A DNA stretch of 64,000 bases, taken from the NCBI GenBank assembly GCA_015060325.1, contig SUYQ01000001.1:62001-126000 (forward strand), in the 5' to 3' direction. Made by a program: the position numbers and the translations under genes. Under the pieces are notes generated by a model. It was not told where the DNA came from. It ran no database searches and saw only the letters and a program-made list of their open reading frames with translations. Of the stretch, positions 579 through 34,517 are shown in pieces (the stretch's first letter is position 1; each line of letters starts with the position of its first letter). The stretch comes from Bacteroidales bacterium (GTDB lineage: Bacteria; Bacteroidota; Bacteroidia; Bacteroidales; UBA932).

Positions 579-579
579 T

Positions 580-2614: not shown

Positions 2615-2616
2615 GG

Positions 2617-3360: not shown

Positions 3361-3428
3361 GTTATAGTAATTTTTCTTGCAGATTGTGTGTTTTTAAGTA
3401 ATTGTGTCTTAATGTTATAACATGATAC

Positions 3429-3512
3429 TTAGCGTATTTTTGGTACAAACTGGCGGGGTGAATGCAATCTTATGTTAAATTTGCATAGATAATAACGCTA
3501 AAACCAAAAATA
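3429..3512 (+). promoter_or_regulatory. xylB promoter with candidate operator repeats
   Basis: A Bacteroidota -7 box TAAATTTG is at 3476-3483, about 28 bases before the xylB start. A 10-base inverted repeat flanks it (TATTTTTGGT at 3435-3444 and ACCAAAAATA at 3503-3512), and TTAGCG/CGCTAA at 3429-3434 and 3496-3501 is also repeated in inverse. These are candidates for binding by the Nudix regulator encoded just upstream; the binding is inferred. Confidence 0.55.
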
Positions 3513-4978: not shown

Positions 4979-4981
4979 TAC

Positions 4982-5017
4982 TGTCATTTCGAGCGAGCGA
5001 AGCGAGTCGAGAAATCT
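4982..5017 (+). repeat. Dispersed hairpin repeat (TCATTTCGAG type)
   Basis: A 36-base copy, TGTCATTTC...GAAATCT, in the xylB-xylA gap. ATTTC pairs with GAAAT, followed by a tandem G-A/A-G step. It probably lies in the xylB-xylA transcript. Confidence 0.9.
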
Positions 5018-5043
5018 ATCAATCAATTAATAAACATAAAACT

Positions 5044-6360
5044 ATGGCAACAAAAGAATTTTTCCCTGGAATCGGCAAGATCCGGTTTGAAGGCAAGGAG
5101 AGCAGAAACCCTATGGCTTTCCGTTACTATGATGCAAACAAGGTAGTCCTCGGCAAGACAATGGCTGAGTGGCTCAAGTTCTCTATGGCATGGTGGCACA
5201 CACTCTGCGCAGAGGGTGCTGACCAGTTCGGTGGCGGAACAAAGACCTTCCCTTGGAACGGCGCAGCTTGCCCTGTTCAGGCGGCAAAGGATAAGGTGGA
5301 TGCTGGTTTCGAGTTCATGCAGAAGATGGGCATCGAGTACTATTGCTTCCACGATGTAGACCTTGTTGACGAGGGCGCGAACGTTGAGGAATATGAGGCT
5401 CGTCTGAAGGAAGTTGTTGCATACCTCAAGGAGAAGCAGGTTGAGACAGGCATCAAGCTTCTTTGGGGAACAGCAAACGTATTCGGCCACAAGAGATATA
5501 TGAACGGTGCGGCTACAAACCCTGATTTCGACGTTGTGGCACGCGCAGCCGTACAGATCAAGAACGCTATCGACGCTACTATCGAGCTCGGCGGTACAAA
5601 CTACGTGTTCTGGGGTGGTCGTGAGGGTTACATGAGCCTTCTCAACACAGACCAGAAGCGTGAGAAAGAGCACCTTGCAATGATGCTTACCATCGCACGT
5701 GACTACGCACGTTCAAAGGGCTTTACAGGAACATTCCTCATCGAGCCTAAGCCAATGGAGCCTACAAAGCATCAGTATGATGTTGACACCGAGACTGTAA
5801 TCGGCTTCCTCAAGGCTCATGGCCTTGACAAGGATTTCAAGGTTAACATCGAGGTGAACCACGCAACTCTCGCAGGCCACACATTCGAGCACGAGCTCGC
5901 ATGCGCAGTCGACGCAGGCATGCTAGGTTCTATCGACGCAAACCGCGGTGACTACCAGAACGGATGGGATACTGACCAGTTCCCGATCGACTCATTCGAC
6001 CTCACTCAGGCTATGATGCAGATCATCCGCAACGGCGGTCTCGGAAACGGTGGTACAAACTTCGACGCAAAGACCCGTCGTAACTCTACCGACCTTGAGG
6101 ACATCTTCATCGCTCACATCGCAGCAATGGATGCAATGGCACGCGCTCTCGAGAACGCAGCTGCTCTCCTCGAGGAGTCTCCGCTCTGCCAGATGGTGAA
6201 GGAGCGTTATGCAAGCTTCGACGCAGGCCTCGGAAAGAAGTTCGAGGACGGCGAGCTTACTCTTGAGGACGTTTACGCTTATGGTAAGGAAGTAAACGAG
6301 CCTAAGCAGACCTCCGGCAAGCAGGAGCTTTACGAGGCAATCCTTAATATGTATTGTTAA
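5044..6360 (+). CDS. xylA: Xylose isomerase
   Basis: Converts D-xylose to D-xylulose; metal-dependent TIM-barrel enzyme of the 438-residue class II type usual in Bacteroidota. The family signatures are visible: FHDVDL near the catalytic histidine, [30 protein letters not shown] with metal-binding glutamate, and VNHATLAGH. Codon use is strongly biased (many CTC, CGT, GGC), which suggests high expression. It lies 65 bases after xylB. Confidence 0.97.
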
Positions 6361-6486
6361 AGATCCTTCGCTGCGCTCAGGATGACAGAGGGAAATCTCA
6401 GGATGATAGAGGAAAATCTCAGGATGACAGAGGAAACTTGTCTGAATGCAATGCATCAGTGTCATGTTGAGCGAAGCGAAACATCT
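6361..6486 (+). repeat. Cluster of dispersed hairpin repeats between xylA and xylE
   Basis: Right after the xylA stop there is one copy in reverse orientation (6361-6387, AGATCCTTCGCTGCGCTCAG...), two decayed half copies with CTCAGGATGA, and one forward copy of the ATGTTGAG type at 6460-6486. The last ends 10 bases before the xylE start. Confidence 0.88.
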
Positions 6487-6496
6487 GTACACGTAT

Positions 6497-7964
6497 ATGA
6501 CAAATACAAATAATAAAGGCAGCAAGGGCTATCTGTTTTCGATAGTCCTTGTCGCCGTTATCGGAGGTCTGCTGTTCGGATACGATACAGCAGTGATTTC
6601 GGGTGCAGAGAAAGGCCTTCAGGCGTTCTTCATGGGCGCTGAGGATTTCGAATACACCGACTTCATACATGGTATCACATCATCCAGCGCATTGATCGGA
6701 TGTGTGATCGGTGCAGCGATTTCAGGTATATGTGCCTCCAGGATGGGTAGGAAGAAATCCCTCATAATGGCGGGTGTGCTCTTCTTCCTGTCTGCCCTTG
6801 GCTCGTACTGTCCCGAATTCCTGTTCTTTCCTAAGGGAGAGCCATCCCTGTCGTTATTGATAGCATTCAATTTCTATAGAGTCCTTGGTGGCATTGGAGT
6901 AGGTCTTGCTTCCGCAATATGTCCTATGTACATCGCAGAGGTCGCTCCGAGCGATAAGAGAGGTACCCTTGTTTCATGGGAACCAGTTCGCGATCATCTT
7001 CGGTCAGCTTGTGGTGTATTTCGTAAACTTCATAATTCTTGGAGACCATATTGCTCCTGAAATCGAGGAAGTTGCATCCGGAGTCAATAAGATCACCAAC
7101 TCAGCCCTTCTTGTAGGTGACTCCAACTGGAGCATCACTACAGGCTGGCGCCTGATGTTCGTCAGCGAGGCTGTTCCTGCAGCTCTCTTTACGATTCTTC
7201 TTTTCTTTGTCCCTGAGACGCCTAGATATCTTGCAATGACAGGCAAGGATGAAAAGGCTCTTAATATCCTGACCAAGATCAACGGAAGAAGCAAGGCTCA
7301 GGAGATCATGAGCGAGATCAAGGCTACGGTTGTCGAGAAGAAAGAGAAACTGTTTACATATGGTGCGCTTGTAATCTTCATCGGCATAATGCTCAGCGTA
7401 TTCCAGCAGGCGGTAGGCATCAATGCTGTTCTCTACTATGCTCCTCGTATTTTCGAGTCTCTCGGAATGGGCAATCCGATGATGCAGACTGTGATCATGG
7501 GTATTGTGAACATTTCGTTCACGCTCCTTGCAATCTTCACTGTAGAGAAATGGGGCCGCAAGCCTCTCCTGATATGGGGATCTCTCGGTATGGCAATCGG
7601 AGCTGCAGGAGTCATGCTGACAAGCATGTCTTCAGCTATTCCTCCGGTTGTTGCAGTTGTCAGCATCATGATCTACAGCGCATCGTTCATGTTCAGCTGG
7701 GGCCCTATATGCTGGGTGCTCATCTCAGAGATATTCCCTAATACCATCAGAGGTGCAGCAGTGGCGATTGCAGTTGCATTCCAATGGATCTTCAACTTCA
7801 TCGTATCTTCTACCTTTGTCCCGATGTACAACATGAGTCCTGCGTTCACATATGGTCTTTACGGAGTCATATGCGTTCTGGCGGCAGTGTTCGTCTGGAA
7901 GCTTGTCCCTGAGACAAAGGGCAAGACCCTGGAAGATATGACGAAACTCTGGAAGAAGAAATAA
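6497..7964 (+). pseudogene. xylE: Xylose:H+ symporter (MFS sugar porter) interrupted by a one-base frameshift
   Basis: Two frames together encode a 12-TM sugar porter close in length (about 488 residues) to E. coli XylE. The first frame (from ATG 6497, MTNTNNKGSKGYLFS) runs through FGYDTAVISG and PMYIAEVAPSDKRGTLVSW. Homology then continues one frame over with NQFAIIFGQLVVYFVN and ends in VPETKGKTLEDMTKLW at 7964. The break is a GGG run at 6978-6980 where GG would restore the frame (TCA TGG AAC CAG). Everything else is intact, so this is either a sequencing or assembly error, a phase-variable tract, or a very young pseudogene. Third gene of the xylBAE unit. Confidence 0.9.
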
Positions 7965-22822: not shown

Positions 22823-24918
22823 TGGAAATAGAGAAAGACAAAATATTTGAAATGGCCGAGCGCTATGTGAATCACACAGGCTGCTCGGTCTTTCTTACTG
22901 GAAAGGCCGGTACCGGAAAGACTACGTTTCTGCGGTACATAGCCCGGACTTCCAGGAAGCGTTTTGTCATTCTCGCACCTACAGGTGTTGCGGCAATCAA
23001 TGCGGGCGGCAGCACCATACATTCCTTTTTTCAATTGCCGCTGTGTCCTTATCTTCCTGATGTCAAGGAACTTATCACGGAATATCAGACTCCGGAGCGT
23101 TACAGAAGTCTCCGCAAGGAGCGACAGAAGATAATCCGTACCCTGGATCTTCTGATCATCGATGAGATATCCATGGTGCGTGCCGATCTGCTTGATGCGG
23201 TAGACATGACTCTAAGACGTTATCGTCATAATGACAGACCTTTCGGAGGTGTGCAGCTCCTGATGATAGGGGATGCCCAGCAGTTGTCTCCGGTCTTGAA
23301 GGAGAGTGAGCGGCAATATATGAATCAGGTATATCCTTCTCCGTATTTCTTCCATTCGAAGGCTCTACAGCAGCTGCGTTATGTGACTATCGAGCTGCAG
23401 AAGGTCTATCGTCAGAAGGATGCGGATTTTCTTGAGATCCTTAATGCCGTCAGGGACAACAGGGTGACCCAGTCTATGCTGGATGCCTTGAATTCTCGAC
23501 TTCATGCCTATCAGGATGATGGCCGGACCATCCGTCTGACTACGCACAATGCCCAGGCTGACGGTGTGAATGCCATGAAGCTGGACGAACTGCCGGATGA
23601 ACTCCATATGTTTGAGGCTGATGTGGACGGTGAATTCCCGGAGAATATCTATCCGGCCGATCATGTGCTTTCTCTCAAGGAGGGTGCACAGGTCATGTTC
23701 ATCAGGAATGATTCCGAGGGGCAGTACTATAATGGCAAGCTTGGCAAGGTGCGTTCCATCAATGTCAATGGAACCATAGAGGTGGAATGTGCTGACGGTG
23801 AGTCTGTATGGGTGAGCCCGGTAGAGTGGGAAAACGTGCAGTACGGACTTGGCGAGGACGGCGAGATCGAGCCCAATGTGGTGGGACGTTTCAAGCAGTA
23901 TCCTCTCAGGATCGCCTGGGCCATCACCATCCACAAGAGCCAGGGACTTACATTCGACAGGGTCATAATAGATGCTTCAGCTGCCTTTGCATTCGGTCAG
24001 GTATATGTTGCCTTGTCGCGTTGCAGGTCTCTCGAGGGAATTTCTCTTGAGTCTCCGGTACGTCTTTCCGGGATATGTTCGGATATGTATGTGTCGTCAT
24101 TCAACAGTTCCATTCCTTCTGCGGAGGCAGTGTCCGATAATCTTGGTCCGGAGATGGACAGGTATCTGTATGATACCCTATGTGAACTGTTCGGTCTGGG
24201 TGATGTCCTGAGCCAGCTTGACAGATATAGGAGGTCGTGGGCAGGAACTGTCGAGAAGGTGTACGGTTCCGAGTATGAAGGCCTGATGAGCCGGACACAG
24301 ACTCTGGAGGATGCCAGGGGAGTGGCAGTCAGGTTTGAGCGTCAGTTGAGATATATCCAGCAGTCTCGCAGCTCGGATGCGGACTATCTGAATGAAAGGC
24401 TGTTGAAGGCATCGGAATATTTCCTTCCGGTCATGGTGGATATATTTGAGTTTGTGCGCAGGTGCAGTTCGCTGCCTGTCGACAACAAGGAAGTCAAAGC
24501 AAAGGCCAAGGAACTTGCCGAGCAGCTTCTCATTAGTCTCGACATAAAGTGCCGTGCGATGGCATGTGTGAAGGAAGGGAAATTTACAGTGGATGAGTAT
24601 GCCCGCATCAGGACCGAATGCAATCTGGAAGACCGTTCGTCCCGTACCTCGTCACGTAAGGCGAAACTGACGGCTGTTCAGGGAGCTGTAAATGAAGAAC
24701 TCCGTGAACGCCTTATGGAATGGCGCTCCCAGCGTTTCAAGCAGGACAATGTTCCGGCCTACATGGTCATGCAGCTTGCCACCTTATCTGCCATCGCCTC
24801 CCACATCCCGCACACCAAAAAGGAACTCCTCTCCATCAAAGGCTTCGGCGAACTCAGCTTCAAGAAATATGGCGAAGAGATCCTCGCCATCACAGCGGAA
24901 TTCGCAAACCATCAGTAG
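22822..24918 (+). CDS. PIF1-like helicase with C-terminal HRDC-like region
   Basis: A 698-residue SF1 helicase. Walker A TGKAGTGKTT (about 26-35), LAPTGVAAINAGGSTIHSFF, Walker B IIDEISMV, GDAQQLSPV, and C-terminal IHKSQGLTFD and YVALSRCR are the PIF1/RRM3 motif set. After about residue 450 there is a helical region, then a putative HRDC domain near the end (YMVMQLATLSAIAS...LLSIKGFGELSFKKYG). This family unwinds DNA during replication or repair. Its end overlaps the convergent WG-repeat gene by seven bases. Confidence 0.9.
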   Translation: MEIEKDKIFEMAERYVNHTGCSVFLTGKAGTGKTTFLRYIARTSRKRFVILAPTGVAAINAGGSTIHSFFQLPLCPYLPDVKELITEYQTPERYRSLRKERQKIIRTLDLLIIDEISMVRADLLDAVDMTLRRYRHNDRPFGGVQLLMIGDAQQLSPVLKESERQYMNQVYPSPYFFHSKALQQLRYVTIELQKVYRQKDADFLEILNAVRDNRVTQSMLDALNSRLHAYQDDGRTIRLTTHNAQADGVNAMKLDELPDELHMFEADVDGEFPENIYPADHVLSLKEGAQVMFIRNDSEGQYYNGKLGKVRSINVNGTIEVECADGESVWVSPVEWENVQYGLGEDGEIEPNVVGRFKQYPLRIAWAITIHKSQGLTFDRVIIDASAAFAFGQVYVALSRCRSLEGISLESPVRLSGICSDMYVSSFNSSIPSAEAVSDNLGPEMDRYLYDTLCELFGLGDVLSQLDRYRRSWAGTVEKVYGSEYEGLMSRTQTLEDARGVAVRFERQLRYIQQSRSSDADYLNERLLKASEYFLPVMVDIFEFVRRCSSLPVDNKEVKAKAKELAEQLLISLDIKCRAMACVKEGKFTVDEYARIRTECNLEDRSSRTSSRKAKLTAVQGAVNEELRERLMEWRSQRFKQDNVPAYMVMQLATLSAIASHIPHTKKELLSIKGFGELSFKKYGEEILAITAEFANHQ

Positions 24919-25922
24919 TTTCTGACAATCTCGCCCTTTTTGTTGATGTATACCCATTTGTCCCACCAGAGGAACTTTTTAGATCTGGTGACAAGAGCCA
25001 GACCGTTCTGAAAGTCCCTGGCCTTCTTCCAGACAAACGGAATCACGACATCGCCTTGTTTGTTGATGTAGCCCAGCTTCTTGTTCTCAAAACTTTGTAC
25101 AGCTGCCAGACCTTCGCTGAACATGCTTGCTTCCTTCCATTGAAAACCGATGTCGATGTTTTTTGTCCATCGGTTCATGAACCCGCACTTGCCTTCGTCA
25201 TTCTTTACTGCAATCAGTGATTCGCTGCAGAATCCCATTGCCTTCCATTCGCATGGAATGACGAGCTTTCCCAACTCATTGATCATACCGTGTCTTCCAT
25301 TTGACTTGACCTTGGCCAGACCTTCGTTGAATTGCCATCCGTCTTCCCATATGCATGGTGAGATCATCTTGCCTCTTATGTCCATGTAGCCGACAAGACC
25401 GGTCGTGTCATCAACGACGGCGACTAGATATTCAGTCAGTATTCCGACATTACGCCATATGCATGGAATCACTTCGTTTCCACGTCTGTCAACGAATCCC
25501 CACTTTTTTGTCGCCTTGTCTTGAGCCATGGCCAGTCCATGTCTGAAGTGGCTGATGTGAGAGTACTTTTCATTAGTGATCACCATGTGACCATAATGGT
25601 CTACTATGCCCTGGAATACATGACCTCCCCCTTTGACAAGAGGGCTGAATTGCGGATGAAGTCCTTGGTAGTCAATTTCCTTCTGCTCTTTGTCGGCCTT
25701 GGCCCTTGCAGCCATCCTCTCCATATAATCTTCCCGATCCGGCCCGCAGTAGCCCGGTTCGTAATGGTCACGCCAATATAAAGGATCGGTCTTGTCTGTG
25801 ATCTCAGTCTGAACGTCCTGGTCTTCCATCAGAAAAGGATAGACCATGTTTCCATCTTCATCAATATATATTCCGGATACTCCCAGTCCTGTGAATGAGT
25901 AATCTTTCTTTTCTATTGACAT
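24912..25922 (-). CDS. WG-repeat protein (copy B)
   Basis: A 336-residue protein without a signal peptide. An N-terminal segment (GLGVSGIYIDEDGNMVYPF) and a helical linker precede about seven WG repeats of the form KWGFVDRRGNEVIPCIW. The closest relative in the window is at 26409-27440, with the same order of parts. Last gene of a compact three-gene unit. Function unknown; WG repeats are thought to form protein-binding beta structures. Confidence 0.82.
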   Translation of the reverse strand: MSIEKKDYSFTGLGVSGIYIDEDGNMVYPFLMEDQDVQTEITDKTDPLYWRDHYEPGYCGPDREDYMERMAARAKADKEQKEIDYQGLHPQFSPLVKGGGHVFQGIVDHYGHMVITNEKYSHISHFRHGLAMAQDKATKKWGFVDRRGNEVIPCIWRNVGILTEYLVAVVDDTTGLVGYMDIRGKMISPCIWEDGWQFNEGLAKVKSNGRHGMINELGKLVIPCEWKAMGFCSESLIAVKNDEGKCGFMNRWTKNIDIGFQWKEASMFSEGLAAVQSFENKKLGYINKQGDVVIPFVWKKARDFQNGLALVTRSKKFLWWDKWVYINKKGEIVRNY

Positions 25923-25936
25923 AGCGAGAGTCCTTT

Positions 25937-26395
25937 TTATATGATTCCGTTCTTGACTTTTGTTATTGCATCATCAATTGCTCGGGCAACATTGCATCCG
26001 GAATCGTAGAGGAGGCTGCCACGAGGGGCCGAATGCACGCAATTGATCTCGATTGTTCTGACCTGATGCTCTCGGAGGACTATCAATACGTCAACTTTAT
26101 ACTCCTCAGGCCCTCCAGGGTCGGAAGTGCCAGGAGTTTCCTTTTCGACAATCTTTACTTCTGCTATCTGATCACGTGTGAACTCTATCTGCTTTTTGGG
26201 AGTTATGTATGTGAGTTCCTGTGAGTTGATGTCAATTGCTATGAAGTTGTAAACATGGTTTACAAGGACTTTGTGGACATGCCTGTCTGAGTAGGCCTGG
26301 ACTTTTGTGATGAATTTGGATTGCTGGATCTTTGATATGCCCACACAAACAATCACAACAGCAACTATAAACGCTATAAAGCAGAGTATTGTCAT
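25937..26395 (-). CDS. Small membrane-anchored protein of unknown function
   Basis: A 152-residue protein: one N-terminal TM helix (about 2-20) and a soluble beta-rich domain with TPKKQIEFTRDQIAEVKIVE, similar in feel to PH-like membrane-associated domains. I do not recognise the family. It sits 14 bases after one WG-repeat gene and 13 bases before the other, so it is very likely made with them. Confidence 0.65.
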   Translation of the reverse strand: MTILCFIAFIVAVVIVCVGISKIQQSKFITKVQAYSDRHVHKVLVNHVYNFIAIDINSQELTYITPKKQIEFTRDQIAEVKIVEKETPGTSDPGGPEEYKVDVLIVLREHQVRTIEINCVHSAPRGSLLYDSGCNVARAIDDAITKVKNGII

Positions 26396-26408
26396 ATTTA
26401 CCTCCTTT

Positions 26409-27440
26409 TTATCCTTTGACTATTTCACCCTTTGTATTGATGCGAACCCATTTGTCCCATAAAAGGAACCGTTTGGAGTTTGACACAATCGCGATTCCGT
26501 TCTCGAAATTCATGGCCTTTTTCCAGATAGGAGGAATGATGACTTCTCCTTTTTTGTTGACGTATCCAAACAGATTGTTGAAGTCCTGGACTATTGCCAT
26601 GCCTTCATGGAATGGCCACACTTCTTTCCATTGGCAAGGAATCACGATCTCCCCTTTGGAATTGATGTATCCACACCTGTCTTCTTCATTTCGGGCTCCC
26701 ATCAGGTGTTCTCTGTACTCACCCAGCCCCTTCCAGACGCATGGAATCACCTGTCTGCCGCATGTGTCTATCATCCCCAGCCTTCCATCTGCCATGACTC
26801 TGGCCTGGCCATCCTTGAATTCCCAACCGTCTTCCCATATGCAAGGTATCACCAACTTGCCTTGTACATCGAAATATCCACAGAGACGCGTATGGTTGTC
26901 CTGGACGCAAGCAAGATACCCGCTGAAGTTTCCGGCACTGTTCCAGATGCAGGGTATTACCTCGTTTCCATGCCTGTCAATGAATCCCCACTTTCTGGTC
27001 ACCTTGTCCTGAGCTCTGGCCAGTCCGTTGCAGAACTGATCGACAAACAGGTATTTCTCATTTCTGATTATCATTCTTCCTGTACCATCTGCAACACCTC
27101 TGAATGCTTTAGATGCTCCAGGTTCAAAGGCTGGATGTATTCCCTGAAGGAGAATCTCCTTCTGTTCCTTATCCGCTCTGGCTCTTGCTGCCATCCATTC
27201 CATCCAGGCTTCACGATCGGGACCGCAGTAGCGCGGATCGTAGTCGAAAAACCAGTAATCGGGATTGGTCTTGTCATTGAGTGCTTTCTGAACACCGACA
27301 TTCTTCAATTTTTCAGAAGCCCATTTCCCAATGGCTGGATCTGCAGGCTTGTAGCCTTCCAGTTCAGAAGGACTGTACATGTTCCCCTCTTCATCTTCCC
27401 ATAATCCTGACTCTCCCAACATTCTAAACTTATCTGCCAT
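26409..27440 (-). CDS. WG-repeat protein (copy A)
   Basis: A 343-residue protein with the same plan as the gene at 24912: N-terminal GLWEDEEGNMYSPSE segment, the shared DYDPRYCGPDREAWMEWMAARA linker, then WG repeats (KWGFIDRHGNEVIPCIW, LFGYVNKKGEVIIPPIW). The shared linker shows the two genes arose by duplication. First gene of the three-gene unit; no clear TAnnTTTG promoter was found in front of it. Confidence 0.82.
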   Translation of the reverse strand: MADKFRMLGESGLWEDEEGNMYSPSELEGYKPADPAIGKWASEKLKNVGVQKALNDKTNPDYWFFDYDPRYCGPDREAWMEWMAARARADKEQKEILLQGIHPAFEPGASKAFRGVADGTGRMIIRNEKYLFVDQFCNGLARAQDKVTRKWGFIDRHGNEVIPCIWNSAGNFSGYLACVQDNHTRLCGYFDVQGKLVIPCIWEDGWEFKDGQARVMADGRLGMIDTCGRQVIPCVWKGLGEYREHLMGARNEEDRCGYINSKGEIVIPCQWKEVWPFHEGMAIVQDFNNLFGYVNKKGEVIIPPIWKKAMNFENGIAIVSNSKRFLLWDKWVRINTKGEIVKG

Positions 27441-27581: not shown

Positions 27582-28066
27582 TGTCATTTCTTTCGCTTTG
27601 CTCAAGCGGCAAGCCGATTGCGACCGAGCCGCCCCATTGTCATGTTGAGCGAAGCGAAACATCTTTCACACCATTCCGCCCACTGTCATTTCGACCGAGC
27701 GCCCTACTGTAATTTCGACCGGGCGGTCCACTTGTGCGCCTCACTGTCATTTCGACCGAGCGGAGCGAGTGGAGAAATCTGCTCACCAGACCCGCCCCAT
27801 CATTCCGACCGGTCCTTTACTTGTGAGCCTCTCCTGTCATTTCGACCGAGCGCGCCCCATTGTCATGTTGAGCGAAGCGAAACATCTTTCACACTATTTC
27901 TCCAACTGTCATTTCGACCATTCTGCCTACTGTCATTTCGACCGAGCCGCCCATTGTCATTTCGACCGAGCGAAGCGAAACATCTTTCACACTATTTCTC
28001 CTACTGTCATTTCGACCGAGCGACTCCCACTGTCATTTCGACCGAGCGGAGCGAGTGGAGAAATCT
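27582..28066 (+). repeat. Dense cluster of dispersed hairpin repeats
   Basis: Complete copies at 27638-27664 and 27861-27887 (ATGTTGAG type) and at 27745-27780 and 28031-28066 (ATTTCGACC type), plus a chimeric copy near 27958 and at least six truncated TGTCATTTCGACCGAGCG heads in between. Confidence 0.9.
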
Positions 28067-28084
28067 GTTGTGCTAGTTATGCGC

Positions 28085-28180
28085 GGCACCATCGTCGGAA
28101 TATACGGTCTCCGACGACTACAGCCCAGGCGCTGCGGGGAGCTCGACCCTGAAGGGCTCTCCTCGCGCCTGGCTGTTGCC
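28085..28180 (+). repeat. 96-base structured box, copy 1
   Basis: Runs from GGCACC to GTTGCC. Contains hairpin CGTCGGA/TCCGACG and a longer hairpin CAGGCG...CGCCTG. Copy 2 at 34240-34335 differs at three positions. Confidence 0.85.
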
Positions 28181-28186
28181 CGAATA

Positions 28187-28263
28187 TCACCCCAAATGTT
28201 CAGGTGGAGCTTTTTCAGAGAAATCCGTCACCCCGAATGTTCAGGTGACCCCGAAAGTTACAG
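28187..28263 (+). repeat. Short direct repeats resembling an insertion-sequence end
   Basis: TCACCCC(A/G)AATGTTCAGGTG occurs at 28187-28206 and 28228-28247 (19 of 20 identical), followed by ACCCCGAAAGTTACAG. No transposase gene is present. Confidence 0.5.
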
Positions 28264-28304
28264 TTTTATGGACACGTAATGCCCTGTCTATGAATGGTTT
28301 GACT

Positions 28305-28341
28305 ATCAACACGGTGGGTATTTTTGACCCACCGTGTTGAT
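28305..28341 (+). repeat. Perfect 15-bp hairpin, module copy 1
   Basis: ATCAACACGGTGGGT pairs with ACCCACCGTGTTGAT around a 7-base loop. A diverged copy is at 34743-34779 with similar flanks. Confidence 0.85.
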
Positions 28342-28495
28342 GGTTATGTCGCTGAGAGTGAGGACGTTACGTGACCATCTTCGCAGGGCTGCGGGGTGCC
28401 TTTGTGGTCTTTTCTATCTGTTGCGAATTACTATTGTGTGGAGCAGTTGGCGTTTCGCCGACTGCGGTGCATGCAAGTCATTGTGTATCTCTTTT

Positions 28496-28639
28496 GCAAA
28501 ACCCTTGGCATGGGAGATCGTGCTCTGGTGCGTTCTATGGCATGTTGCGATTCCTACTGGTGCCTGGTTCTGCACCCTTGGGAGTTTGAATCTGCATTTT
28601 GTGCGCTGTGTGCCATCTCGGTCCTCCCAAGGGTTTTGC
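28496..28639 (+). repeat. Inverted repeats with mutually exclusive pairing
   Basis: GCAAAACCCTTGG (28496-28508) is perfectly complementary to CCAAGGGTTTTGC (28627-28639). CCCTTGGGAG (28575-28584) competes for the overlapping CTCCCAAGGG (28624-28633). Confidence 0.6.
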
Positions 28640-28698
28640 TGTCATTCCTTTCGCTGGCGCCCAAGCGACTTTACCTATTACGACCGAGCGACTTATTC

Positions 28699-28734
28699 TG
28701 TCATTTCGACCGAGCGGAGCGAGTGGAGAAATCT
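28699..28734 (+). repeat. Dispersed hairpin repeat (ATTTCGACC type)
   Basis: A full 36-base copy about 70 bases ahead of the kinase 1 promoter; the equivalent copy for kinase 2 is at 31362-31397. Confidence 0.9.
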
Positions 28735-28801
28735 ACCCACCCGACCTGTACCCGTCATTTCATACGGAAATCCCACCATTTCTTACAATAAGTGCTGCCG
28801 G

Positions 28802-28833
28802 TTTGCTTGTCAGTCAATAAAATGCTACCTTTG
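28802..28833 (+). promoter_or_regulatory. Promoter of kinase gene 1
   Basis: TTTG at 28802-28805, 20 bases, TACCTTTG at 28826-28833; conserved in front of the second kinase gene. Confidence 0.8.
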
Positions 28834-28865
28834 GGCTGCAATTCAATAGACAAACCGAAATCATC

Positions 28866-31118
28866 ATGCATCTGAAAAACGGTGCCGTCCTTAAGCGCGG
28901 CGAATACAGGATTGAGAAACTGCTCGGTCAGGGCGGCTTCGGCATCACATATCTGGCTGTCCAGTCAGGTCTAGACCGCAAGGTGGCGATCAAGGAGTTC
29001 TTCATGAAGGATCTCTGTGAGCGTGATGCCGACACATCTTCTGTCACCCTTGGCACCAGCGGCAGCCGCCAGACGGTCATCCGCTTCAAGGAGAAGTTCA
29101 TACGTGAGGCAAAGACCATCGCGTCGCTCAGACATCCCAACATCGTCAATATCCACGATGTCTTCGAGGAGAACGGTACTGCCTACTATGTGATGGAATA
29201 CCATGATGGCGGTTCTCTGTCGTCTCTTGATCTCCCTCTGTCTGTTGAACAAGCCTCCGGCTATATCCGCCAGATCGCATCAGCCCTCTCTTATCTCCAC
29301 AAGCGTAATACGATGCATCTGGACGTCAAGCCGTCAAATATCCTTCTGGATGAGAGCGGCAATGCTGTGCTGATCGATTTCGGCGTCTCGAAGCACTACG
29401 ACCAGGCCGGTCATCAGACGAGCTCTACTCCGGTGGGCATCAGCCACGGCTATGCGCCAGGTGAACAATACCAGCAGAATGTCCTTTCTTTCAGTCCTAC
29501 CACAGACATCTATGCTCTAGGTGCAACATTTTACAAACTTCTGACAGGCTTGACCCCTCCTCATCAGAACGAGGTTGCAGAAAACGGTCTTCCCGTCTTC
29601 CCGTCATCAGTTCCTGCAAGTGTCGCTTCCGTGATAGATAAAGCCATGCAGCCCCGCCGTAAGGACCGTCCACAGAGCATCGAGGAGTTCCTCGGTCTTC
29701 TTGATGCCGCTCTGGCCGTTCCCGTTCCGGCTGAAGATCCAGACGAATCGACTGAGATCGAGATTGTTGAAGCGGTTGCAGTCGACGATTCGGAACCGGT
29801 TCCTACCCCGTCTCATGAGTCTCGTCAGTCTACGAAGAAGCCATCCCGCAAATGGCTGTGGTGGTTGGTTGCTCTGCTTGTTGCCGTTGTCGGTGCAGCT
29901 GCAGTGTTGTTCATGGGTAAGGATGCTCAGCCTGCTGGATCTTCCGAGACTCCTTCATCCACAACAGAAACCGTTAGGTCATCAGAAAACCCTTCATCCC
30001 AGACAGAAGCCGATCAAGCAAGAAGTGACGCTCAGCAGTATGCAAGTTTGATGGAGATGGGAGCGGAGTATGAAGAGAACGATGCGACCTTGAATAAGGC
30101 CAAAGAGAAGTATACCTCAGCAAAAGAATTAGAAGAGAAATGGTCACAGTCCAAGGATTACGGATCTTTGTTCTCTAAGGATGCCGCCGGGGCATTGAGA
30201 AGAGTTGAAGATAAACTTAAAGAATTGGAGAAAGCAGAATCGAAGAAGAAAGCATTTGAAAATCAATTCAAATCTGACCTTGCGACATATAACGATTTGA
30301 TATCCTCCGCAGATAAACTATGTGATAAAGGAGACGAGTCTTCTCTTAAGACAGCAATCGAGAAATATAAATCCGCAGCGGAAATAGAGTCGAGATATAA
30401 GCGAACAGAGTATTCAGACCGATTCAATCGTGCGGCTTCCACTTCTGCCGGCCGTGCCGAGAAACGTTTGTCCGATGTTCAAGCAGCACTGAAGCAAGCA
30501 AAAGAACAAGCAGCGGCAAAGAAGAAAGCCGAAGAGGCAACCAAGAAGAAGGCAGCAGGGTCTGCTTCCCTGACCGGCACTCATAAGAGTCATGAATGGG
30601 TAGACCTGGGCTTGAGCGTTAAATGGGCAACATGCAATGTAGGTGCATCAAATCCAGGAGAATATGGAAACTATTATGCCTGGGGCGAGACTACAACCAT
30701 GAAGGAATATAATTATGGCGAATGTGCGTCATGGGGCAAGTCATGGGGAGACATCGGTGGAAACTCCAGCCGTGACGCAGCGACCGCCAACTGGGGCGGT
30801 GACTGGCGCCTGCCGACTAAGGAAGACTTTGAGGAACTGCGTGAACACTGTACCTGGGAGTGGACAACTCTGAACGGTCACAACGGTTACAAGGTGACGA
30901 GCAAGCAGAACGGCCAGAGCATCTTCCTCCCTGCTGCGGGTTATCGCGGCGGTGATGCTGGTGAGGGCAGCGTTGGTTCGTACGGCGACTACTGGAGCTC
31001 TACGCCTTACGAGGGCAATGCCTACGACGCGTTCGGCCTCTACTTCATCGAGGACTACCACAGCGTGAATTGGTACGACCGTGACCTCGGCCGCAGTGTC
31101 CGCCCAGTCCTAGAATAG
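28866..31118 (+). CDS. Transmembrane Ser/Thr kinase with coiled-coil stalk and putative DGR-variable lectin-like domain (copy 1)
   Basis: A 750-residue receptor-like kinase. The kinase domain spans about 13-280: glycine loop GQGGFG (21-26), Lys43 in VAIKEF, HLDVKPSN (151-158), DFG (171-173). A Pro/Glu-rich linker, one TM helix (about 330-350), a Ser/Thr-rich stretch and a Lys/Glu-rich coiled coil (about 385-555) follow. The C-terminal FISUMP-type domain (about 565-750: HEWVDLGLSVKWATCNVGAS ... YWSSTPY ... SVRPVLE) resembles C-type-lectin folds used as DGR targets. The predicted topology is kinase inside, lectin-like domain in the periplasm. Compared with copy 2 the tail differs almost only at codon positions 1 and 2. 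It has its own promoter and terminator; the ligand is unknown. Confidence 0.9.
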   Translation: MHLKNGAVLKRGEYRIEKLLGQGGFGITYLAVQSGLDRKVAIKEFFMKDLCERDADTSSVTLGTSGSRQTVIRFKEKFIREAKTIASLRHPNIVNIHDVFEENGTAYYVMEYHDGGSLSSLDLPLSVEQASGYIRQIASALSYLHKRNTMHLDVKPSNILLDESGNAVLIDFGVSKHYDQAGHQTSSTPVGISHGYAPGEQYQQNVLSFSPTTDIYALGATFYKLLTGLTPPHQNEVAENGLPVFPSSVPASVASVIDKAMQPRRKDRPQSIEEFLGLLDAALAVPVPAEDPDESTEIEIVEAVAVDDSEPVPTPSHESRQSTKKPSRKWLWWLVALLVAVVGAAAVLFMGKDAQPAGSSETPSSTTETVRSSENPSSQTEADQARSDAQQYASLMEMGAEYEENDATLNKAKEKYTSAKELEEKWSQSKDYGSLFSKDAAGALRRVEDKLKELEKAESKKKAFENQFKSDLATYNDLISSADKLCDKGDESSLKTAIEKYKSAAEIESRYKRTEYSDRFNRAASTSAGRAEKRLSDVQAALKQAKEQAAAKKKAEEATKKKAAGSASLTGTHKSHEWVDLGLSVKWATCNVGASNPGEYGNYYAWGETTTMKEYNYGECASWGKSWGDIGGNSSRDAATANWGGDWRLPTKEDFEELREHCTWEWTTLNGHNGYKVTSKQNGQSIFLPAAGYRGGDAGEGSVGSYGDYWSSTPYEGNAYDAFGLYFIEDYHSVNWYDRDLGRSVRPVLE
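30972..31112 (+). other. Putative DGR variable region of kinase 1 (residues 703-748)
   Basis: Aligned without gaps to the kinase 2 tail, 20 codons differ. Examples: TAC/AGC, GAC/CGC, GAC/TGC, GGC/TAC, ATC/GGC, AGC/TAC. 25 of 27 base changes are at codon positions 1 or 2, as expected if template AAC codons had their adenines randomised. Confidence 0.75.
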
Positions 31119-31122
31119 AAGA

Positions 31123-31140
31123 AACAGGCGGGAGCCTGTT
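31123..31140 (+). other. GGGA-loop hairpin directly after variable region 1
   Basis: AACAGGC pairs with GCCTGTT around GGGA, five bases after the stop codon. DGR target sites characteristically carry such a hairpin with a GRNA loop just downstream; it could also help transcription end. Confidence 0.7.
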
Positions 31141-31171
31141 CATTGATTTATTTGATTCATTTGATTTATTT

Positions 31172-31199
31172 ACGTGCTGCATTTAAGACAGCACGTTTT
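31172..31199 (+). terminator. Terminator of kinase gene 1
   Basis: ACGTGCTG pairs with CAGCACGT, followed by TTTTG. The same structure follows kinase gene 2. Confidence 0.75.
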
Positions 31200-31246
31200 G
31201 TTGAATACAATTGTGTCTGTGCAGCGGGTCGAAAATCTTTATGTAA

Positions 31247-31397
31247 AGATCCTTCGCTTCGCTCAGGATGACAGAGATGCGCTCAGGATGACATGTTGTA
31301 TGAGCTGCTCAAGTTGTCATGTTGAGCGGAGCGAAACATCTTTCACACTATTCTGCCCCACTGTCATTTCGACCGAGCGGAGCGAGTGGAGAAATCT
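31247..31397. repeat. Dispersed hairpin repeats between the kinase genes
   Basis: One reverse copy (31247-31273), a half copy, one ATGTTGAG copy (31315-31341) and one ATTTCGACC copy (31362-31397). This fills most of the 411-base gap; no gene is seen. Confidence 0.9.
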
Positions 31398-31465
31398 ACT
31401 CACCAGACCTGCTACTCGTCATTTCATTCGGAAATCCCACCATTTCGTACAATAAGTGCTGCAGG

Positions 31466-31497
31466 TTTGCTTGACATTCAATAAAATGCTACCTTTG
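31466..31497 (+). promoter_or_regulatory. Promoter of kinase gene 2
   Basis: TTTG at 31466-31469, 20 bases, TACCTTTG at 31490-31497. The sequence from here to the ATG is nearly identical to that of kinase gene 1. Confidence 0.8.
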
Positions 31498-31529
31498 GGC
31501 TGCAATTCAATAGACAACCCGAAATCATC

Positions 31530-33908
31530 ATGCATCTGAAAAACGGTGCCGTCCTTAAGCGCGGCGAATACGGGATAGAGAAACTGCTCGGTCAGGGCGG
31601 CTTCGGCATCACATATCTTGCTGTCCAGTCCGGCCTTGACCGCAAGGTGGCGATCAAGGAGTTCTTCATGAAGGATCTCTGTGAGCGTGATGCCGACACA
31701 TCTTCTGTCACCCTTGGCACCAGCGGCAGCCGCCAGACGGTCATCCGCTTCAAGGAAAAGTTCATCCGTGAGGCAAAGACCATAGCTTCGCTCAGACACC
31801 CCAACATCGTCAATATCCACGATGTCTTCGAGGAGAACGGTACTGCCTACTATGTGATGGAGTACCATGACGGCGGCTCATTGTCTTCACTTGACCTTCC
31901 TTTGTCTGTTGACGAAGCCTCCGGCTACATCCGTCAGATAGCATCAGCCCTCTCTTATCTCCATAAGCGTAATACGATGCATCTGGACGTCAAGCCGTCA
32001 AATATTCTTCTGGATGAGAGCGGCAATGCTGTGCTGATCGATTTCGGCGTCTCGAAGCACTACGACCAGACAGGTAATCAGACGAGCTCGACTCCGGTAG
32101 GCATCAGTCACGGCTATGCGCCCGGCGAGCAGTACCAGCAGAATGTCCTTTCTTTCAGTCCTACCACAGACATCTATGCGCTAGGTGCAACATTCTACAA
32201 GATTATCACCGGTCTGACACCTCCTCATCAGAATGAAGTAAACGAGAATGGATTACCTCCGTTCCCAACTTTTGTCCCATCTGGCATCATCTCGCTGATC
32301 GATAAGTCCATGCAATCAAAACGCAAGGACCGTCCTCAGAGCATCGAGGAGTTCCTCGGTCTTCTTGATGCCGCTCTAGCCGTTCCCGTTCCGGCTGAAG
32401 ATCCGGACGAATCGACTGAGATCGAGATTGTTGAAGCGGTTGCAGTCGACGATTCGGAACCGGTTCCTACCCCGTTTCATGAGTCTCGCCAGTCTCCGAA
32501 GAAGCCATCCCGCAAATGGCTGTGGTGGTTGGTTGCTCTGCTTGCGGCTATCACCTGTGCAGCTGCAGTGCTGTTCATGGGTAAAGATGCTCAGCCTGCT
32601 GGATCTTCCGAGACTCCTTCATCGCAAACAAAATCAGCTGGGTCATCCGAGGCTCCCAGAGAGGTGCCTGGCAACTCTGTTGATCAGCCAACTCGTCCTC
32701 AGCATGAGCTGGACAAAGAAAAATATGACAGTCTTCTGAATGCGGCATCCAAGGTGTCCCTTTCTGATCTTGCTTCTTATGATAAAGCGATTGGATTGTA
32801 TGGGCAGGCGAAGGGTTATGAGGAAAGCTATAATAAAACAGAACATGCGTCCTCGTTTTCCGGAAATTCGCAGTCGAAGATAGATGAACTAGAGACTGCC
32901 AAGGAAAAACTCAGGCAAACATTGTCAGAAGCCGATCAAGCAAGAAGTGACGCTCAGTCGTATTCCAGTTTGATGGAGATGGGAGCGGAGTATGAAGAGA
33001 ACGATGCGACCTTGCAGAAGGCCAAAGAGAAGTATAACTCAGCAAAAGAATTAGAAGAGAAATGGTCACACTCTAAGGATTACGGTTCGTTGTTCTCTAA
33101 GGATGCCTCTGGAGCATTGAAACGAGTGGAAAATAAACTTAAGGAATTGGAGGAAGCAGAATCGAAAGCGAAAGCAGCAGAAAAGAAATTCAATGACGAC
33201 TTTAAGAAATATAACCAACTGATATCTGACGCAGATAAACTATGTGATAAGGGAGACGAGTCTTCTCTTAAGACAGCAATCGAGAAATATAAATCCGCAG
33301 CGGAAATTGAGTCAAGATATGAGCATTCAGAGTATTCAGACCGATTCAATCGTGCTGCTTCCACTTCTGCCGGCCGTGCTGAGAAACGTTTGTCCGATGT
33401 TCAAGCAGCAGCGAAGTCTGTTTCCCTGACCGGCAAGCATAATGGTCACGCATGGGTAGACTTGGGTTTGAGCGTCAAATGGGCTACGTGCAACGTAGGT
33501 GCTTCCCGTCCAGGAGATTATGGAAACTATTATGCCTGGGGTGACACCGGTGGAAGCTCCAGCCGTGACGCTGCGACAGCCTACTGGGGCGGCGACTGGC
33601 GCATGCCGACTAAGACAGAATTCCAGGAACTGATTCGTGAATGTACCTGGGAATGGACAACCCAGAACGGTCACAACGGTCGCAAGGTGACGGGTCCAAA
33701 CGGCCAGAGCATCTTCCTCCCTGCTGCGGGCAGGCGCCTCGGTGCTGGTGAGGAACACGTTGGTTCGAGCGGCCGCTACTGGAGCTCTACGCCTAACGAG
33801 AGCTATACCTACTGCGCGTACTACCTCTACTTCGGCAAGGGCTACCACTACGTGAATTGGGACGGCCGTAGCCGCGGGCACAGTGTCCGCCCGGTCCTAG
33901 AAGATTAG
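31530..33908 (+). CDS. Transmembrane Ser/Thr kinase with coiled-coil stalk and putative DGR-variable lectin-like domain (copy 2)
   Basis: A 792-residue paralogue of the gene at 28866, with nearly identical kinase (GQGGFG, VAIKEF, HLDVKPSN, DFGVSKHYDQ) and TM region. The stalk is longer: an extra block of about 75 residues (around 385-460, SLLNAASKVSLSDLASYDKAIG) is inserted before the shared coiled coil. The C-terminal domain is shorter before the variable part, lacking the TTTMKEYNYGECASWG loop of copy 1. The last ~47 residues carry the variable region. The activation segment (TSSTPVGISHGYAPGEQ) resembles PknB-type kinases; HxD lacks the preceding Arg, so it is a non-RD kinase. Confidence 0.9.
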   Translation: MHLKNGAVLKRGEYGIEKLLGQGGFGITYLAVQSGLDRKVAIKEFFMKDLCERDADTSSVTLGTSGSRQTVIRFKEKFIREAKTIASLRHPNIVNIHDVFEENGTAYYVMEYHDGGSLSSLDLPLSVDEASGYIRQIASALSYLHKRNTMHLDVKPSNILLDESGNAVLIDFGVSKHYDQTGNQTSSTPVGISHGYAPGEQYQQNVLSFSPTTDIYALGATFYKIITGLTPPHQNEVNENGLPPFPTFVPSGIISLIDKSMQSKRKDRPQSIEEFLGLLDAALAVPVPAEDPDESTEIEIVEAVAVDDSEPVPTPFHESRQSPKKPSRKWLWWLVALLAAITCAAAVLFMGKDAQPAGSSETPSSQTKSAGSSEAPREVPGNSVDQPTRPQHELDKEKYDSLLNAASKVSLSDLASYDKAIGLYGQAKGYEESYNKTEHASSFSGNSQSKIDELETAKEKLRQTLSEADQARSDAQSYSSLMEMGAEYEENDATLQKAKEKYNSAKELEEKWSHSKDYGSLFSKDASGALKRVENKLKELEEAESKAKAAEKKFNDDFKKYNQLISDADKLCDKGDESSLKTAIEKYKSAAEIESRYEHSEYSDRFNRAASTSAGRAEKRLSDVQAAAKSVSLTGKHNGHAWVDLGLSVKWATCNVGASRPGDYGNYYAWGDTGGSSSRDAATAYWGGDWRMPTKTEFQELIRECTWEWTTQNGHNGRKVTGPNGQSIFLPAAGRRLGAGEEHVGSSGRYWSSTPNESYTYCAYYLYFGKGYHYVNWDGRSRGHSVRPVLED
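33759..33902 (+). other. Putative DGR variable region of kinase 2 (residues 744-790)
   Basis: Counterpart of 30972-31112. Conserved anchors GTTGGTTCG, CTACTGGAGCTCTACGCCT and AGTGTCCGCCC bracket the variable codons. Only one difference (GGC/GGG) cannot be read as a mutated template adenine at codon position 1 or 2 or as an A/G change. Confidence 0.75.
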
Positions 33909-33909
33909 A

Positions 33910-33927
33910 AACAGTCGGGAGCCTGTT
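33910..33927 (+). other. GGGA-loop hairpin directly after variable region 2
   Basis: AACAGTC-GGGA-GCCTGTT, the same element as after kinase 1 but with one T/C mismatch in the stem, so it may be weaker. Confidence 0.6.
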
Positions 33928-33940
33928 CATTGATTTATTT

Positions 33941-33968
33941 ACGTGCTGCATTTAAGGCAGCACGTTTT
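33941..33968 (+). terminator. Terminator of kinase gene 2
   Basis: ACGTGCTGC pairs with GCAGCACGT, followed by TTTTG. Confidence 0.75.
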
Positions 33969-34015: not shown

Positions 34016-34226
34016 AGATCCTTCGTTGGCGCTCAGGATGACAGTGGGACGCTCAGGATGACAGATATGCGCTCAGGATGACAGTGTGTCATTCTGTATG
34101 ACCTTTGGATGCTCCGTATTACATGTTATTCGAGATGCTCAAGTTGTCATGTTGAGCGAAGCGAAACATCTTTCACACTATTTCTCTCACTGTCATTTCG
34201 ACCGAGCGGAGCGAGTGGAGAAATCT
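34016..34226. repeat. Dispersed hairpin repeat cluster after kinase 2
   Basis: A reverse copy at 34016-34046, two half copies with GCGCTCAGGATGACAG, then ATGTTGAG (34145-34171) and ATTTCGACC (34191-34226) copies in the same order as in front of kinase 2. Confidence 0.9.
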
Positions 34227-34239
34227 GTATGTTGTGCGT

Positions 34240-34335
34240 GGCACCGTCGTCGGAATATACGGTCTCCGACGACTACAGCGCAGGCGCTGCGGGGAGCTCG
34301 ATCCTGAAGGGCTCTCCTCGCGCCTGGCTGTTGCC
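34240..34335 (+). repeat. 96-base structured box, copy 2
   Basis: 93 of 96 bases match 28085-28180. One change extends the first hairpin to GTCGTCGGA/TCCGACGAC. Confidence 0.85.
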
Positions 34336-34427
34336 TTTTAGCACCCTATTATGTATAGGTACGTGCTCGAAGGACGGTTTTGGTTGCCCTTTAATGGGAA
34401 CCGGAGTGCTTGGCCATGAAATGCCTC

Positions 34428-34517
34428 AAACTCGTCCAAGCGGTGTGGATTTTATGCGGAAAAAGCTACTTTGTAGTACCGCTTGTGCCTGAATCGCTTG
34501 AAACTCGTCCAAGCGGT
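34428..34517 (+). repeat. 17-base direct repeats
   Basis: AAACTCGTCCAAGCGGT at 34428-34444 and 34501-34517. The second copy also forms hairpins through CGCTTG/CAAGCG. Confidence 0.6.

What the first reader, a model, noticed from the sequence alone, without database searches (positions are those of the whole stretch)
28866..33908. Tandem transmembrane Ser/Thr kinases whose lectin-like tails look like diversity-generating retroelement targets
In the last ~45 codons the paralogues differ in 20 codons, 27 base changes by my count, 25 of them at codon positions 1 or 2, mostly in codons keeping a third-position C (TAC/AGC, GAC/CGC, GAC/TGC, GGC/TAC, ATC/GGC). In 29 codons near the start of the same domain, 9 of 12 changes are third-position. 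Ordinary drift gives the second pattern; adenine mutagenesis of a template rich in AAC gives the first. The domain (FISUMP/C-type-lectin-like, ending SVRPVLE) is of the kind DGRs diversify. A hypervariable periplasmic domain joined through a coiled coil and TM helix to a cytosolic kinase would be a receptor with a programmable sensor.
Basis: partly seen in the sequence, partly recalled or inferred. Interest (0 to 1): 0.93.

Follow-up and report, generated by a model that had tools for sequence, protein, structure and literature searches.

The report
Retroelement-rewritten sensor tails on receptor kinases
Two neighbouring genes of what is likely a gut bacterium encode kinases predicted to span the cell membrane, and the ends of their sensor-like tails differ in the pattern left by a retroelement that likely rewrites chosen codons, so the cell would be able to try out new sensors on a fixed signalling protein; the template that would do this was not found in this genome assembly.

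Summary
The two tails belong to nine near-identical variable regions scattered over this genome, on five kinases and four secreted-type proteins. They vary at codon positions 1 and 2 while third positions are nearly fixed, the reverse of the rest of the domain. The template repeat (TR) of another genome, G143, predicts which bases vary: 42/50 adenine columns, 7/72 others; four real TRs rank 1-4 of 37 predictors. All nine stops are followed by a GGGA-loop stem, a published target mark of diversity-generating retroelements (DGRs). G143 holds a complete system: a kinase of the same build whose tail differs from its TR at 20 bases, all adenines, beside Avd and reverse transcriptase; that TR matches five more dispersed regions, one in a second kinase. 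A template inferred from this genome's tails retrieved 90 database proteins, 87 with a reverse-transcriptase domain. Not met: no TR for the kinases in this 93%-complete assembly; its one DGR (contig C20) serves another protein. So: DGR targets, present activity unproven. DGR-diversified kinases are known in cyanobacteria; this is a membrane-receptor, multi-target variant.

The parts
28866..31118 (+). Kinase 1: Ser/Thr kinase - membrane helix - coiled-coil-like linker - FISUMP/Lcl_C tail, 750 aa
   Evidence: linker type by eye
28905..29675 (+). Kinase domain of kinase 1 with glycine loop, VAIK, HLD and DFG motifs
   Evidence: Pfam stretches 14-239 and 17-270; motif positions; end set at residue 270
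29856..29912 (+). Predicted membrane helix of kinase 1 (residues 331-349)
   Evidence: hydropathy
30591..31115 (+). FISUMP/Lcl_C C-type-lectin-like domain of kinase 1
   Evidence: (under the Pfam cut-off)
30939..31094 (+). Variable region of kinase 1; third positions are homogenised from about 30918 to the gene end
31123..31140 (+). Hairpin after the stop, 7-bp stem, GGGA loop (GRNA consensus of DGR target sites)
   Evidence: consensus from PMC3240598
31143..31171 (+). (TTGATTYAT)n repeat, found in this genome only after tails (5 of the nine)
31172..31196 (+). Second hairpin; stem sequence differs between genomes
31530..33908 (+). Kinase 2, same build with a longer linker, 792 aa
32520..32576 (+). 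Predicted membrane helix of kinase 2
   Evidence: hydropathy
33447..33905 (+). FISUMP/Lcl_C domain of kinase 2
   Evidence: Pfam over the cut-off
33729..33881 (+). Variable region of kinase 2
33910..33927 (+). Hairpin after the stop, GGGA loop, one stem mismatch
33941..33965 (+). Second hairpin

Best explanation
The tail ends of both kinases carry the signature of variable regions of a diversity-generating retroelement, and were likely rewritten by an error-prone reverse transcriptase that copied an adenine-rich template repeat not found in this assembly. Shown by sequence: nine tails in this genome share fixed anchors and third-position bases while first and second positions of AAC-type codons are scrambled; each stop is followed by a stem with a GGGA loop; another genome (G143) carries kinase, Avd, TR and RT together with adenine-only TR/VR differences, and its TR also matches dispersed regions, in a second kinase (by its N-terminus) and in secreted-type proteins. 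Inferred: adenines of a TR transcript are misread into cDNA, and the cDNA replaces the tail of any gene with matching anchors and the hairpin, in trans, so one template supplies several receptors. Inferred: the tail lies outside the cytoplasmic membrane, binds a ligand through the lectin-like face, and passes the signal through linker and helix to the cytosolic kinase. Not known: the ligand, the phosphorylated targets, and whether the template still exists in living cells of this species.
For: Codon-position reversal. TR of G143 as predictor: at codon positions 1+2, 42 of 50 adenine columns vary against 7 of 72 others, p 2e-17; four real TRs (G143, G013, G108 and this genome's own C20) rank 1-4 of 37 predictors, phi 0.55-0.75, against at most 0.43 for 33 other tails. 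At G143 AAC/AAT codons differences by position are 463/379/87 of 676 comparisons. GGGA loop stem after 9 of 9 tails of the class, 0 of 2 divergent tails. G143 kinase VR/TR: 20 mismatches, all at TR adenine, 0 other, with Avd and RT beside it; the same TR matches five more regions, one with 17 adenine and 0 other mismatches on a protein with a signal-like sequence, one on a second kinase with 20 and 4. The TR inferred from these tails retrieves template-RT proteins: 87 of 90 hits carry RT PF00078, best identity 84% over 95% of the query; short-ORF templates too. The genome has DGR machinery: RT with best PDB match 8ub7, an Avd-like protein, and a TR/VR pair with 24 adenine and 1 other mismatch.
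Against: No TR for the kinases in the assembly by VR or inferred-TR search and no second RT. The C20 TR has other anchors. Kinase 1 stands in the protein database as one sequence on 9 contigs, so no turnover is seen; kinase 2 as 3 sequences on 13 contigs that could not be read. No hit near-identical to the inferred TR (best 79% and 84%). Only 3 of 101 genus genomes (own included) match the inferred TR; only 5 of the 33 tail-bearing genomes searched have a close RT. In five other genomes the tail pattern is weaker: third-position changes 36-146 beside 68-222 and 82-172 at positions 1 and 2. Non-adenine columns are not perfectly fixed: 2-7 of 124-129 deviate in eight tails, 19 of 129 in C7a. The G143 targets have no GGGA stem, and four of the nine stems here have mismatches. 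The second hairpin could be a transcription terminator.
Confidence: 0.87

Rival explanations
1. Relict (a sub-case: the tails are DGR variable regions, but frozen): they were rewritten in the past, template and matching RT have been lost from this lineage, and the tails now drift.
For: No TR or second RT in the assembly; kinase 1 on 9 contigs as one sequence; 28 of 33 tail-bearing genomes searched lack a close RT.
Against: Third-position deviations in the tail are 0-4 of 57-60 for eight of nine tails (11 of 60 for C7a) against 5-15 of 33 in the domain front, so rewriting was recent; loop stems are kept on all nine; the assembly is only 93.45% complete in 43 contigs.
Confidence: 0.35
2. Ordinary positive selection on surface residues plus gene conversion between paralogues, with no reverse transcriptase.
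For: Dispersed paralogues could exchange tails; surface residues of a binding domain are expected to vary, and ordinary homologous tails also predict the variable columns to a lesser degree (phi up to 0.43).
Against: It gives no reason why real templates predict the variable columns better than all 33 other tails, for nearly fixed third bases within scrambled codons, for the GGGA stem, or for the adenine-only TR/VR pair on the same kind of kinase.
Confidence: 0.04
3. The DGR on contig C20 rewrites the kinase tails with the template found there.
For: Same genome; open RT and Avd-like genes; its TR resembles the inferred kinase template over 89 bases at 79%.
Against: Ungapped comparison of the kinase tails with the C20 TR gives only short pieces, the best with 2 and 4 non-adenine mismatches in 36 and 47 bases, whereas its own VR has 1 in 198. 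The C20 RT acting on a second, unseen TR is not excluded.
Confidence: 0.02

Closest known systems
Cyanobacterial DGR variable proteins with Ser/Thr kinase and CLec domains (PMC7517822; passages and section 7 read)
   Same: Ser/Thr kinase joined to a C-terminal C-type-lectin-like domain holding the VR; remote targets and paralogues; the authors propose ligand-tuned kinases
   Different: That paper calls most of its variable proteins predicted cytosolic, while noting evidence for membrane and secreted ones; here the kinases have one predicted membrane helix and share their VR class with signal-like proteins; FISUMP/Lcl_C type; likely Bacteroidales
Thiohalocapsa PB-PSB1 DGRs (PMC10907252; passages read)
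   Same: Several targets, a Pkinase domain among the annotated target domains, sensor reading, TR acting in trans on remote VRs
   Different: STAND/NACHT and ternary conflict systems of a multicellular sulfur bacterium, with natural variation measured; none measured here
BPP-1 DGR target site with downstream hairpin (PMC3240598; passages read)
   Same: 7-bp stem and 4-nt GRNA loop shortly after the VR
   Different: Phage target; here a repeat and a second hairpin follow
Complete DGR of G143 (JAJPYQ010000041.1, Prevotellaceae bacterium AH.B5_2)
   Same: Kinase-helix-FISUMP target, dispersed VRs, (TTGATTYAT)n plus hairpin
   Different: Has its own TR and RT; different anchors and no GGGA stem
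DGR on contig C20 of the window's genome
   Same: FISUMP-type VR, RT, Avd-like protein, adenine-specific
   Different: Target is a DUF4988 protein; the template does not match the kinases

Membership tests
Diversity-generating retroelement target (variable region) | VR differs from a TR of the same genome at TR adenines only | tested here: inconclusive
   No TR for these tails in the 93.45%-complete assembly; met for the same kind of kinase in G143, 20 adenine and 0 other
Diversity-generating retroelement target (variable region) | Variation concentrated at template-adenine positions | tested here: met
   By proxy templates only: 42/50 against 7/72; real TRs rank 1-4 of 37; exceptions at non-adenine columns
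Diversity-generating retroelement target (variable region) | Hairpin downstream of VR, 7-10 bp stem, 4-nt GRNA loop | tested here: met
   Kinase 1: 7 perfect pairs, GGGA; kinase 2: one mismatch; 9 of 9 tails have the loop, 5 of 9 stems are perfect (C15b, C7b, C7c, C18 are not)
Diversity-generating retroelement target (variable region) | VR at the C-terminus of a C-type-lectin fold | tested here: met
Diversity-generating retroelement (machinery in the genome) | DGR-type reverse transcriptase | tested here: met
   C20:153-1295, the one RT in the assembly; best PDB match 8ub7, E 1e-38; that 8ub7 is the Bordetella DGR RT is recalled; link to the kinases not shown
Diversity-generating retroelement (machinery in the genome) | Avd accessory protein | tested here: met
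   C20:1640-2404, C-terminal half, PHROG 'Avd protein of DGR' E 4e-8; no Pfam match
Diversity-generating retroelement (activity) | VR turnover between cells or strains | tested here: inconclusive
   Kinase 1 one sequence on 9 contigs, kinase 2 three on 13; members could not be read
Transmembrane Ser/Thr receptor kinase | Catalytic kinase motifs and a single membrane helix | tested here: met
   prediction only
Transmembrane Ser/Thr receptor kinase | Ligand-controlled phosphorylation | not testable with these tools
   needs biochemistry

The most novel reading that the evidence does not exclude
Gut Bacteroidales run a trans-acting receptor repertoire: one adenine-rich template rewrites, all over the genome, the outer sensors of several transmembrane Ser/Thr kinases and of secreted lectins that share them, a bacterial analogue of a somatically diversified receptor family; the window's genome carries five such kinases (one interrupted) and four secreted partners under a template lost between contigs.
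Probability: 0.55. Interest if true: 0.88.

Novelty: new variant of a known kind. Interest (0 to 1): 0.74.

Why it matters
Receptor kinases normally gain new specificities by slow mutation. If one template can rewrite the sensors of many membrane kinases and of secreted proteins at once, gut bacteria have a directed way to search for new signals, phages or glycans while keeping the signalling output fixed. G143 gives a compact cassette (kinase, Avd, TR, RT) on which this can be tested, and this case suggests how to recognise targets when the template is missing from a draft genome: prediction of variable columns by template adenines, plus the loop stem.

Tried and rejected
C20 template as donor for the kinases: rejected on anchors. 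Template in the assembly: VR1 and inferred-TR DNA searches at E up to 10 gave the nine tails, the C20 TR and VR pieces, pieces of divergent tails and short pieces. Second RT: none. Phage-borne template: an exact 24-mer of the inferred TR has 0 matches in viral contigs; 21 tail relatives in viral contigs are at most 49% identical and were not examined further. The (TTGATTYAT)n 20-mer as a general marker of such systems: 1 of 392 other order genomes has it exactly, 27 viral contigs have it and were not examined, and 4 of 80 tail loci have the shorter form, so it marks a small group. Solved homologue of the tail by sequence: none at E 0.1. Foldseek: no match under E 0.001. PADLOC and NCBIfam hits of the kinases (mad6, PD-T4-6, PknB) mostly cover the kinase domain; the NCBIfam kinase scores are far under the cut-offs; a defence role is not claimed. 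In G143 presence of the second hairpin does not track cleanly with non-adenine mismatches (C53 and C60 read by eye). Rows dropped: of 13 tail domains in the genome the nine with DNA matches of 119 bits or more were counted; C42a, C26a, C10 and C7d were left out as divergent, and the C20 target as another class. The control set is 32 of the 80 tail loci plus the G143 VR.

Full report
What was found. The window is G000:C15:62001-126000 of a 2.47 Mb, 43-contig, 93.45%-complete genome. The two genes at 28866-31118 and 31530-33908 encode proteins of 750 and 792 aa: kinase domain, one hydrophobic helix at residues 331-349 with basic residues before it, a linker that looks like coiled coil (by eye), and a FISUMP/Lcl_C domain.

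A family of tails. A DNA search of the genome with the tail finds nine strong copies (119 bits or more) on contigs C15, C7, C26, C18, C42 and C3; the protein search finds four more divergent domains. Of the nine, five sit on kinases (C15 twice, C18, C42b and C3, the last interrupted by a stop) and four on stand-alone proteins of about 205 aa with signal-like N-termini (C7 three times, C26b). Over the nine, pairwise differences by codon position are 120/97/490 in the front and 611/568/166 in the tail. In sliding windows of 12 columns third-position divergence is 0.35-0.69 over columns 0-77, 0.13-0.34 over columns 72-119 and 0.06-0.15 from column 114 on, while positions 1 and 2 reach 0.42 per site in the tail. 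Tails were thus replaced recently as units, yet differ in the coding positions.

Adenine test. If a template drives this, its adenines should mark the variable columns. I aligned four real TRs (G143, G013, G108 and this genome's own C20 TR, which serves another gene) to the nine tails. With the TR of G143, at codon positions 1 and 2, 42 of 50 adenine columns vary and 7 of 72 others. Exposed residues might vary anyway, so 33 other tails (32 of the 80 loci, and the G143 VR) were used as control predictors: the four TRs rank 1 to 4 of 37 (phi 0.75, 0.62, 0.61, 0.55; best control 0.43, the G143 VR). Most controls also show a weaker association, as expected of homologues. Inside AAC/AAT codons of the G143 TR the differences are 463/379/87 of 676 comparisons. 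Non-adenine columns deviate from the majority at 2-7 of 124-129 sites in eight tails and 19 of 129 in C7a.

Target-site mark. All nine tails are followed, 7 bases (6 in C7b) after the last domain codon, by a stem with a GGGA loop; five of nine stems have seven perfect pairs, four have mismatches; the two divergent tails examined lack it. In the window the pattern occurs twice, at 31123 and 33910, with 0.01 expected at up to two mismatches. The Bordetella work describes 7-10 bp stems with GRNA loops 4 to 34 bp after the VR, and a stem needed for efficient homing (PMC3240598, passages). The G143 targets do not have this stem. Behind it lies a (TTGATTYAT)n repeat that occurs in this genome only after tails: nine matches at five places with up to two mismatches, none for the reversed control. 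A second hairpin follows, whose stem differs between genomes; folded as DNA the kinase 1 and kinase 2 stretches have z -6.0 and -4.3, the G143 VR stretch -2.9, and the stretch after the G143 TR +1.1. The same repeat and second hairpin follow the kinase of the complete DGR in G143.

A complete system in another genome. L100 (JAJPYQ010000041.1, Prevotellaceae bacterium AH.B5_2, genome G143) encodes a 647-aa kinase with a hydrophobic stretch (by eye) and FISUMP tail, then two small proteins, the second matching Avd (PHROG E 5e-22; Pfam bAvd E 2e-8, under its cut-off), then a TR in frame with an RT. VR and TR differ at 20 of 185 bases, every one a TR adenine. The TR has six VR-like matches in that genome: the kinase, 20 adenine/0 other; a protein with a signal-like sequence, 17/0; a second kinase (by its N-terminus; no family search run), 20/4 with three gap bases; a short frame, 25/5; a copy with a one-base gap, 21/6; and a secreted-type protein, 17/15, of which the database search aligned only the last 143 bases. 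This is sequence evidence for one template serving remote targets, kinases among them; the layout resembles that of the window's genome.

Template retrieved from the database. The template inferred from the nine tails, as a 58-aa query, finds short Asn-rich frames of the type PAAGWRNG..NNVG.NGNYWSSTPNESN.NNAYNLNFN (69 hits, 15 read). Joined to the C20 RT so that longer proteins qualify, and scored on the 58 residues alone, it finds 90 proteins; 87 carry RT PF00078, and in the 12 of those that I read the template sits at the N-terminus of the RT frame. The placement of Asn was mine, which favours Asn-rich hits, and I had seen the C20 template; the shared anchors come from the tails.

What is missing. 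Neither the tails nor the inferred template find a TR for the kinases in the assembly, and there is one RT only. It lies at the end of contig C20, 152 bases from the edge, with its own DGR: DUF4988-FISUMP target, Avd-like protein, and TR/VR with 24 adenine and 1 other mismatch. This RT is sporadic: 9 of 61 searched genomes, own included, match it at E 1e-20, and 5 of 33 tail-bearing genomes at E 1e-30. Of eight RT loci fetched from other genomes seven gave a TR/VR pair with 0-2 non-adenine mismatches; the G140 locus, whose RT is broken, gave none. Whether the kinases' template sits in the missing part of the genome or was lost lately cannot be told. Kinase 1 appears as one protein sequence on nine database contigs; the three sequences of kinase 2 could not be read, so turnover between samples is not shown.

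Known or new. [quoted passage not shown] most of these proteins are predicted cytosolic, some membrane-bound or secreted (PMC7517822, section 7). Thiohalocapsa DGR targets include a Pkinase domain and trans templates (PMC10907252, passages). The global survey does not use the word kinase in its main text (PMC8144416). My literature searches (listings only, part of each list, apart from the papers named) showed no report of DGR-diversified kinases in Bacteroidales; subscription papers and preprints are not in that library. I therefore call it a new variant of a known kind.

Noticed in passing
L156 (G000:C42) 936-3128 +: A kinase - FISUMP protein that continues into a TonB C-terminal domain (PF03544 E 2e-19): a kinase fused to a TonB-type end.
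   Followed up: partly
L002 (G000:C20) 153-5142 -: A complete DGR with a DUF4988-FISUMP target, Avd-like protein, TR and RT; the contig ends 152 bases after the RT.
   Followed up: yes
L096, L105, L131: Frames beginning like TIR domains (MKYDVFISYSS type, by eye) that end in the same FISUMP tail.
   Followed up: no
G143: L164, L249, L250, L251, L252, L253: One template with six dispersed variable regions: two on kinases, two on secreted-type proteins, two short or frame-shifted.
   Followed up: yes
L163 (G149) 4406-6718: A 770-aa DGR target with repeated FISUMP domains; two different places match one template (13 adenine/1 other and 10/0), so one protein may hold two variable regions.
   Followed up: partly
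L160 (G000:C3) 3777-5524: A kinase of the family interrupted by a TAA, with its tail still in the homogenised class and the loop stem present.
   Followed up: partly
window 27618-28849 and 34109-34492: Repeat-rich intergenic DNA around the kinases whose translations repeat (HFDRAERVEKS, CHVERSETSF, by eye); the same kind flanks tails on other contigs.
   Followed up: no
window 24912-27440 -: Two neighbouring proteins of 336 and 343 aa with KWGF-type repeats (by eye) just upstream.
   Followed up: no
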